This document shows, piece by piece, positions 56,488 through 57,311 of a stretch of 64,000 nucleotides of DNA. A program made the translations under genes and the position numbers. This stretch comes from Glaciecola sp. Its GTDB lineage: Bacteria > Pseudomonadota > Gammaproteobacteria > Enterobacterales > Alteromonadaceae. The notes below the pieces were generated by a model. The model had not been told where the DNA came from and made no database searches. It saw nothing but the letters and a program-made list of their open reading frames with translations. How positions within the stretch are numbered: position 1 is the first letter of the stretch; each line of letters begins with the position of its first letter. Location of the stretch: NCBI GenBank assembly GCA_029246415.1, contig JAQWNF010000009.1, forward strand, positions 124,001-188,000, in the 5' to 3' direction.

Positions 56488-56515
56488 TCCTTTAGTTTTT
56501 ACGATATGAAATATG

Positions 56516-56547
56516 AAGCCCAATGCAGTGATGTGTTGGGTTTTTTT
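56516..56547 (+). terminator. Terminator after nusG
   Basis: AAGCCCAA / TTGGGTTT (56516-56523 with 56536-56543, one G-U pair, 12-base loop) ends in seven T residues, 29 bases after the nusG stop. It isolates secE-nusG from the downstream cassette. Confidence 0.8.
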
Positions 56548-56656
56548 GTATATAAAGAAAATAACAAAGCAACAATTCAGTGCTACAGTACAGTGATAAT
56601 GCAAGTTTAAATATTCTATGATGGATTTTCAATAAATCATAATTCAAGGAAATATA

Positions 56657-56926
56657 ATGAAAGAATTGAACAATGAAGAGTTAATGGACGTGCATGGTGG
56701 TATTGGTATCGTAGGAGCTGGATTTGGTGGTGTCTTAGGAGGCATATCTTATTTAGGTAATGCAGCAACTAGTGGTAGTTTTAGTTGGGGAGGATTCGGT
56801 TCTGCTGTAGGAGTGGGAGCGATTTCTGGTGCAGTAGGTGGACCAGTAGGTAGTTCAATTGTCAAATATGGTCTTAGTAAGGTAAGTTTTTACGGAGGAG
56901 CCGCACAAGGTTTAATAAATGATTAA
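56657..56926 (+). CDS. Double-glycine leader bacteriocin/microcin-like precursor
   Basis: This 89-residue protein has a classic double-glycine leader: MKELNNEELMDVHGG, with the spaced hydrophobic/acidic pattern EL...EL..V.GG and predicted cleavage after residue 15. The remaining 74 residues are Gly/Ala/Ser-rich and hydrophobic with many GxxxG-type spacings and no Cys, like pore-forming class II bacteriocins and microcin V-type peptides. AAGGAAA precedes the ATG. The gene overlaps a small membrane-protein gene by 8 bases. No peptidase-containing exporter is in the window. I do not recognise a named family beyond the leader; toxin function is inferred. Confidence 0.8.
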   Translation: MKELNNEELMDVHGGIGIVGAGFGGVLGGISYLGNAATSGSFSWGGFGSAVGVGAISGAVGGPVGSSIVKYGLSKVSFYGGAAQGLIND

Positions 56927-57200
56927 TTCATTACCAATATATAAAATAAGTATCCCATTATTGATGATCGCAATAATAATTTTAATTATGGGGCCTGAGC
57001 AAATTATTGTAACTATGACATACAGTCTTATCATAGTAAATGTAGGGAACTTGGTATTGTACCCTGTCACACAATCATATAGTGCGATTAAGTCAACGCA
57101 ATGGGAAAGTCGTATTCGAACTCATTGGATAAAGCACCAACTGGTGATTTGGCTAGCACTAAGTATTATAATTAATGTGTTAATAGCTTTGTTTAGATAA
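56919..57200 (+). CDS. Small membrane protein, candidate immunity protein
   Basis: This 93-residue protein has three hydrophobic segments (about 8-27, 29-50 and 73-92) and a basic loop near residues 58-72 (SRIRTHWIKHQ). It starts inside the last codons of the bacteriocin-like gene (ATG 56919, upstream stop 56924-56926), so translation should be coupled. Size, topology and position match immunity proteins of microcin V-like systems. The coding sequence is much richer in A+T and ATA/ATT codons than its ribosomal neighbours, suggesting transfer. No homologous family is recognised. Confidence 0.72.
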   Translation: MINSLPIYKISIPLLMIAIIILIMGPEQIIVTMTYSLIIVNVGNLVLYPVTQSYSAIKSTQWESRIRTHWIKHQLVIWLALSIIINVLIALFR

Positions 57201-57208
57201 ACTTATTT

Positions 57209-57249
57209 TGCGCTGCTTGCGCTAGATGTATTATAGCGTAAGCAACGCA
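57209..57249. repeat. Imperfect hairpin at the end of the bacteriocin-like cassette
   Basis: A 16-bp stem (57209-57224 with 57234-57249; one mismatch and one G-U) around a 9-base loop begins 8 bases after the membrane-protein stop. No U-tract follows on either strand. It may be a cassette-end structure, an RNA processing or stabilising hairpin, or a REP-like element. Confidence 0.5.
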
Positions 57250-57282
57250 CGCCCAGATTATTAATGACTGGTACATTAATAT

Positions 57283-57311
57283 TTGACACATCCGTCAAAA
57301 ACGCATATAAT
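57283..57311 (+). promoter_or_regulatory. Perfect-consensus promoter for rplKAJL-rpoB
   Basis: TTGACA (57283-57288), exactly 17 bases, TATAAT (57306-57311), followed by a CG-rich discriminator (CCGCATCCC) typical of stringently controlled ribosomal promoters. It lies downstream of the bacteriocin-like cassette, so the cassette does not interrupt L11 operon expression. Confidence 0.9.

What the first reader, a model, noticed from the sequence alone, without database searches (positions are those of the whole stretch)
56548..57282. Bacteriocin-like cassette inserted between nusG and rplK
Seen: an 89-residue peptide with a textbook double-glycine leader overlaps by 8 bases a 93-residue three-helix membrane protein. 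The pair lies between the nusG terminator and a perfect rplK promoter, inside the secE-nusG-rplKAJL-rpoBC region that is normally contiguous. Known: class II bacteriocins and microcin V-type systems encode such precursor/immunity pairs, usually with a peptidase-ABC exporter and HlyD-type protein. Inference: a horizontally acquired two-gene microcin module has used a spot where insertion does no harm, and relies on an exporter elsewhere. The combination of orphan export and essential-operon location seems previously undescribed.
Basis: partly seen in the sequence, partly recalled or inferred. Interest (0 to 1): 0.87.

Follow-up and report, generated by a model that had tools for sequence, protein, structure and literature searches.

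The report
Microcin-type cassette in nusG-rplK gap
A marine bacterium carries a small gene for a probable secreted toxin and its likely protection gene between two essential genes, with the probable export machine encoded elsewhere in the genome, and the same gap holds other inserts in a number of related bacteria.

Summary
Observation confirmed. An 89-aa double-glycine-leader peptide (56657-56926) overlaps by 8 bases a 93-aa three-helix protein (56919-57200), between the nusG terminator and a 12/12 rplK promoter. Sequence supports a microcin-type bacteriocin/immunity pair; nothing was assayed. The pair occurs in 7 of 10 genomes of the genus (Glaciecola/Opacimonas), with the 8-base overlap in all 7; G000 versus G002 shows purifying selection. 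At four other loci a homologue lies between HlyD and C39-peptidase ABC exporter genes. In this genome the only C39 exporter found is on another contig, in a neighbourhood shared by the genus. The 'normally contiguous' premise needs correcting: in 109 Alteromonadaceae genomes with nusG and rplK on one contig, the gap is >=800 bp in 22 (14 genera), whereas the rplK-rplJ distance stays within 916-1,089 bp in 110 of 110. In the genus the gap holds the pair (2 genomes), a remnant (1), another two-ORF insert (1) or nothing (4); one genome is unclear and one was not seen. Two other genera carry different GG-leader peptides in the same gap. Best reading: a movable cargo cassette served by a distant exporter, in a permissive slot; a new variant of a known kind.

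The parts
56515..56547 (+). nusG intrinsic terminator and T run; left edge of the slot
   Evidence: stem 56515-56544; by eye, homology with G004 ends right after the T run
56593..56622 (+). candidate weak promoter of the cassette (9 of 12 bases)
   Evidence: 8 promoter-like sites in the region against 3.9 +/- 2.2 in shuffles; not evidence of function
56657..56926 (+). GG-leader peptide precursor, 89 aa: 15-aa leader, 74-aa glycine-rich, cysteine-free mature part (6.8 kDa, pI 8.4)
56919..57200 (+). putative immunity protein, 93 aa, three hydrophobic helices; 8-base overlap with the precursor gene
57198..57282 (+). right flank of the slot: by eye, homology with G004, which holds another insert, begins at the partner gene's stop codon; imperfect hairpin
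57283..57311 (+). rplK promoter, TTGACA-17-TATAAT

Best explanation
A two-gene cargo cassette of a microcin-type (unmodified, double-glycine-leader) bacteriocin. The precursor is cut after Gly15 and exported by the C39-peptidase ABC transporter and HlyD-type protein encoded at the genus-wide exporter locus (G000:C43), through TolC. The 74-residue glycine-rich peptide then acts on the membrane of related competitors, and the translationally coupled three-helix protein protects the producer. The cassette is not tied to its exporter: it is found at several sites in the genus, here in the nusG-rplK gap, which tolerates insertions because nusG ends with its own terminator and rplK starts with its own strong promoter. 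Shown: anatomy, conservation, selection between two species, homologues inside exporter loci, exporter and TolC elsewhere in this genome, variability of the gap. Inferred: expression, processing, export by that exporter, killing, immunity, and why the gap is tolerant.
For: Leader positions and glycine richness (criteria in PMC11494933, passages). TIGR03949 over cut-off. Peptide in 7 of 10 genus genomes at four kinds of site; in all 7 a start codon (ATG in 5, GTG in 2) lies 8 bases before the peptide's end. A 51% paralogue in G001:C165 and relatives in G127, G174 and G194 lie between HlyD and C39-ABC genes, with small hydrophobic ORFs. C39 domain in 10 of 10 genus genomes; the own copy has C39, ABC and HlyD domains and candidate catalytic Cys29, His105 and Asp125 plus ABC motifs; TolC. 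dN/dS below 1 for both genes between G000 and G002. Gap >=800 bp in 22 of 109 genomes, control distance 916-1,089 bp in 110 of 110.
Against: No activity, expression or processing data. Outside the G000/G002 pair the partner protein is far less conserved (21-24%) than the peptide (63-70%), which is odd for a specific toxin/immunity couple. No solved-structure match for either protein; no Pfam family over cut-off. The G003 copy lacks a long internal stretch of the peptide and G005 keeps only a remnant. Cargo of the C43 exporter is not demonstrated, and C39 domains are common in the family (71 of 118), so co-occurrence alone is weak. In G194 the linked C39-ABC frame is split into two ORFs.
Confidence: 0.72

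Rival explanations
1. The exported GG peptide is a signal or surface peptide rather than a toxin, and the membrane protein is its receptor or anchor.
For: GG leaders and C39 exporters also serve signals (PMC7018657, abstract in the listing). The genus has other orphan GG peptides, for example beside sucD in G000, G002, G006 and G009. The peptide is better conserved than the partner.
Against: Long glycine-rich hydrophobic mature part; small three-helix partner with an 8-base overlap, like the overlapping genes of the tested McbC/McbI bacteriocin/immunity pair (PMC2761928, passages); the immediate neighbours are nusG and rplK, with no regulator or kinase ORF beside the pair.
Confidence: 0.13
2. 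A decaying relic: the cassette landed here, is silent, and is being lost.
For: Remnant in G005, shortened copy in G003, different insert in G004; only a weak candidate promoter.
Against: Both frames are intact in G000 and G002, with dN/dS 0.10-0.18 and 0.33-0.41; the upstream AAGGA and the overlap are kept.
Confidence: 0.1
3. An internal toxin-antitoxin pair that is never exported; the GG leader is a coincidence.
For: Small overlapping pair found at several sites.
Against: All three leader positions fit, such ORFs are rare in control DNA (1 in 400 kb), and homologues sit inside exporter loci.
Confidence: 0.05

Closest known systems
Class II microcins (microcin V group; criteria from passages of PMC9746304 and PMC11494933)
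   Same: 15-aa GG leader with hydrophobic -4/-7/-12, glycine-rich core, small membrane partner, C39-ABC, HlyD-type protein and TolC in the genome
   Different: Exporter genes are not nearby; glycine share of the precursor (27%) is just above the published 12-26%; host outside the enteric bacteria that gave the ten verified ones; activity unknown
Moraxella catarrhalis McbC/McbI (PMC2761928, passages)
   Same: GG-leader bacteriocin whose 3' end is overlapped by a small immunity gene
   Different: mcbC and mcbI lie directly downstream of their exporter genes; no sequence comparison was made here
TIGR03949, class IIb bacteriocin, lactobin A/cerein 7B family
   Same: P0001 scores over the curated cut-off
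   Different: Only residues 2-33 match, about half of them leader; no second GG peptide in the cassette; Gram-negative host
Streptococcal bacteriocins served by a distant exporter (recalled, not looked up)
   Same: Cargo genes away from one peptidase-ABC exporter
   Different: Gram-positive, no HlyD/TolC route, not in a ribosomal-protein gene gap

Membership tests
Class II microcin | Double-glycine leader with hydrophobic residues at -4, -7, -12 | tested here: met
   V12, L9, L4 of MKELNNEELMDVHGG (criterion)
Class II microcin | Glycine-rich peptide (published range 12-26%) | tested here: met
   27.0% of the precursor, 29.7% of the mature part: glycine-rich, slightly above the published range
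Class II microcin | Adjacent small membrane immunity protein | tested here: inconclusive
   93 aa, three hydrophobic segments, three helices; immunity itself untested
Class II microcin | C39-peptidase ABC exporter with Cys/His/Asp, HlyD-type protein and TolC in the genome | tested here: met
   G000:C43; candidate Cys29, His105, Asp125 by motif; TolC G000:C38
Class II microcin | Exporter genes near the precursor gene | tested here: not met
   The only C39 match is on another contig; met at four homologous loci. Hence filed as 'works like a microcin', not as a proven member
Class II microcin | Antibacterial activity of the mature peptide | not testable with these tools
   no assay possible
Class II microcin | Sequence similarity to the ten verified microcins | not tested
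   their sequences were not at hand; only Pfam and NCBIfam were scanned
TIGR03949 class IIb bacteriocin | Curated score cut-off | tested here: met
   22.7 vs 21.5 bits, residues 2-33
TIGR03949 class IIb bacteriocin | Two-peptide system (recalled definition of class IIb) | tested here: not met
   one GG-leader peptide in the cassette

The most novel reading that the evidence does not exclude
The nusG-rplK gap is a cargo slot in Alteromonadaceae that is filled again and again, among other things by cassettes of exported GG-leader peptides with a membrane partner. A fixed exporter elsewhere serves several scattered cargo loci: a hub-and-cargo design in which toxin/immunity cassettes can be exchanged without moving the exporter. 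The place beside constantly active ribosomal genes may give growth-linked dosage. In this genus the slot is swapped between the nusG terminator and the last stop codon.
Probability: 0.22. Interest if true: 0.68.

Novelty: new variant of a known kind. Interest (0 to 1): 0.52.

Why it matters
Published advice is to look for such bacteriocins close to exporter genes (PMC11494933, passage), so cassettes like this would be missed; here the exporter and its likely cargos lie apart in most genomes of a genus. It also shows that a gap inside a widely conserved gene neighbourhood is recurrently enlarged in one family, which gives a direct place to look for exchangeable competition genes.

Tried and rejected
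Plasmid, phage and viral-contig searches for the peptide: no match. Solved structures: no match for either profile. Pfam: nothing over cut-off for either protein. TIGR01847 leader profile in the genus: insensitive; it did not list the finding's own peptide and gave one other weak place in G000. tRNA-linked integration: no tRNA in 5 of 7 contexts scanned; the only tRNA in the other two is tRNA-Trp upstream of secE. Conserved housekeeping locus: rejected, the gap is empty in 4 of 9 genus genomes with nusG. 'All large gaps are mobile islands': not supported, several (G019, G091, G124) hold ordinary chromosomal-looking genes; the gap proteins were not run against family libraries, except those of G004. 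The A1 matches in G073, G103, G281 and G285:C52, inside frames of over 200 aa, were not counted as relatives of the pair. The GG enrichment of gaps depends on the scan rule: under the first rule gaps gave 1 hit in 105 kb, and loci fetched because they carry GG peptides gave 16 in 244 kb, some of them looking like chance; the second rule gave 3 against 1 in 400 kb. A fold search with the pLDDT-69 model was not run.

Full report
What is there. The peptide has a 15-residue leader ending in GG with Val, Leu, Leu at -4, -7 and -12, and a 74-residue mature part with 29.7% glycine, no cysteine and pI 8.4, with many small-xxx-small motifs. NCBIfam TIGR03949 is over its cut-off on residues 2-33; Pfam gives nothing over cut-off for either protein. 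The partner has three hydrophobic segments and an AlphaFold model of three helices at mean pLDDT 69.

Relatives in the genus. Records found by name are Glaciecola sp. and Opacimonas viscosa; the window's own record is unnamed. Of 60 genomes searched with the single peptide, 9 match at E<=0.01: 7 of the 10 genus genomes, and 2 weak ones outside (E 0.004 and 0.0095). With the profile A1, G004 also has a distant GG-leader relative with a 107-aa neighbour. The 7 copies sit at four kinds of site: nusG-rplK (G000, G002); before an amidohydrolase-like gene (G003, G009); a place that G006 and G008 share, judging by two common downstream ORFs, in G006 about 400 bp after a phage-type integrase; and G001:C243. 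In all 7 a start codon for the partner (ATG in 5, GTG in 2) lies 8 bases before the peptide's end. The G003 peptide lacks a long internal stretch. Apart from the G000/G002 pair (89% and 81%), the peptide is 63-70% identical to ours and the partner only 21-24%, which I cannot explain. Between G000 and G002 dN/dS (NG86) is 0.054/0.547 for the peptide and 0.104/0.317 for the partner; YN00 gives 0.065/0.359 and 0.107/0.264.

The exporter. A C39 domain over the family cut-off is present in 10 of 10 genus genomes. In G000 the only one is on C43, beside an HlyD-type gene, with candidate catalytic Cys29, His105 and Asp125 found by motif (the script printed Cys as 30, recounted here as 29). TolC is on C38. 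Genes I recognise by sequence as folD and/or trigger factor flank the exporter in 8 genomes; in the other two (G004, G008) the contigs of 4.2 and 3.9 kb hold the exporter alone. In G003, G007 and G009 a 57-aa GG peptide and a CAAX-protease-like gene (Pfam for G003 only) lie between HlyD and ABC. In the 20 kb of C43 fetched, no GG peptide was seen. G000 does have a second orphan GG peptide next to sucD (gene by recognition), with counterparts at that place in G002, G006 and G009; by direct search only G002 (65%) and weakly G006 (E 0.03) match it, while the G009 one came from the leader profile. G001:C165 has a 51% relative of our peptide right after HlyD, then four further GG peptides and other ORFs, then C39-ABC. 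G127 and G194 have HlyD, homologue, small hydrophobic ORF, C39-ABC, the last split into two ORFs in G194; in G174 another GG peptide stands between HlyD and the homologue. G096, of another genus, has the peptide with an 80-aa ORF and no exporter in the 16 kb fetched, its C39 domains being on other contigs, so the orphan state is not limited to this genus. With A1, 21 of 295 family genomes match at E<=0.001 in 11 of 52 genera; some weak ones are probably chance. C39 domains occur in 71 of 118 family genomes.

The slot. In the genus, nusG was found in 9 of 10 genomes (not in G006). Downstream lies the pair in G000 and G002, a stretch matching the last 22 codons of the partner gene in G005, another insert in G004, and nothing (206-323 bp) in G001, G003, G008 and G009. 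In G007 the sequence turns to sugar-nucleotide-like genes and the contig ends without rplK being seen. G004's insert holds two ORFs (139 and 386 aa) with no Pfam match at E<=0.01. By eye, G004 and G000 share the left flank up to the terminator T run and the right flank from the partner's stop codon onward, so the slot runs from about 56548 to about 57198.

In a family sample of 118 genomes, 109 have nusG and rplK on one contig and strand; 7 lack both matches, 1 lacks nusG, 1 has them on different contigs. The gap is 230 bp at the median and >=800 bp in 22 of 109, in 14 genera, up to 22 kb. The control distance from rplK to rplJ is 916-1,089 bp in 110 of 110; it spans rplA and holds less intergenic DNA. 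Fisher p is 7e-8, ignoring relatedness. The large gaps hold mixed genes, some of which look like plain rearrangements. Of the 21 large gaps other than ours, two carry GG-leader ORFs on the opposite strand: G130 (two peptides of 52 and 55 aa plus a hydrophobic ORF) and G136 (64 aa plus a 130-aa hydrophobic ORF). Both genomes have a C39 exporter. The final scan gives 3 hits in about 84 kb of gap DNA and 1 in 400 kb of control DNA from 16 family genomes; P of two or more gaps by chance is about 0.02. But the rule was loosened after a first pass that saw one of the three, so this is a lead, not proof.

Literature. Passages of PMC9746304 and PMC11494933 define class II microcins by leader, immunity protein, C39-ABC, HlyD-type protein and TolC, with glycine richness and nearness to the exporter in the second. 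The first also reports that only 81.9% of E. coli microcin hits had a C39-ABC found in the assembly, so hits without a visible exporter are known. PMC2761928 (passages) shows an overlapping bacteriocin/immunity pair with tested immunity. PMC9514032 (passages) lists rplK-nusG as a common cassette (553 genomes). In the listings of searches I saw no report of bacteriocin genes in this gap, or of the gap as an insertion slot; each listing shows only the best papers, and the library is open-access only.

Verdict. Bacteriocin/immunity cassette with a distant exporter: likely (0.72), unproven by experiment. The location is a recurrent slot rather than a one-off.

Noticed in passing
L092:5709-5942 (G000:C31); counterparts in G002, G006, G009: A second orphan GG-leader peptide (77 aa) lies beside sucD on the opposite strand; its counterparts share a short L-x-AP-x-P stretch after the GG. 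A likely second cargo of the same exporter.
   Followed up: partly
L055:3125-4745 (G004): A different two-ORF insert in the same nusG-rplK slot. A TCTTC tandem repeat (5.2 copies) follows an ATG upstream of the first ORF; in this assembly that ATG is not in frame with it, as in repeat-switched genes.
   Followed up: partly
L095:863-1221 and L100:797-1438: Different GG-leader peptide ORFs on the opposite strand of the nusG-rplK gap in two other genera.
   Followed up: partly
L096, L097, L099: Three genomes of one genus (g3) share a 166-169 aa secreted fasciclin-like protein (by recognition, no family search) in the nusG-rplK gap.
   Followed up: no
L013:1056-6151 (G001:C165): An exporter locus with five GG-leader peptide ORFs between HlyD and C39-ABC.
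   Followed up: partly
L048:5952-9311 (G005:C63): HlyD-type and C39-ABC parts read as one 1,119-aa frame in this assembly: a fusion or a sequence error.
   Followed up: no
L046, L050, L052: In three genus genomes a 57-aa GG peptide and a 227-aa CAAX-protease-like membrane protein sit between HlyD and C39-ABC.
   Followed up: no
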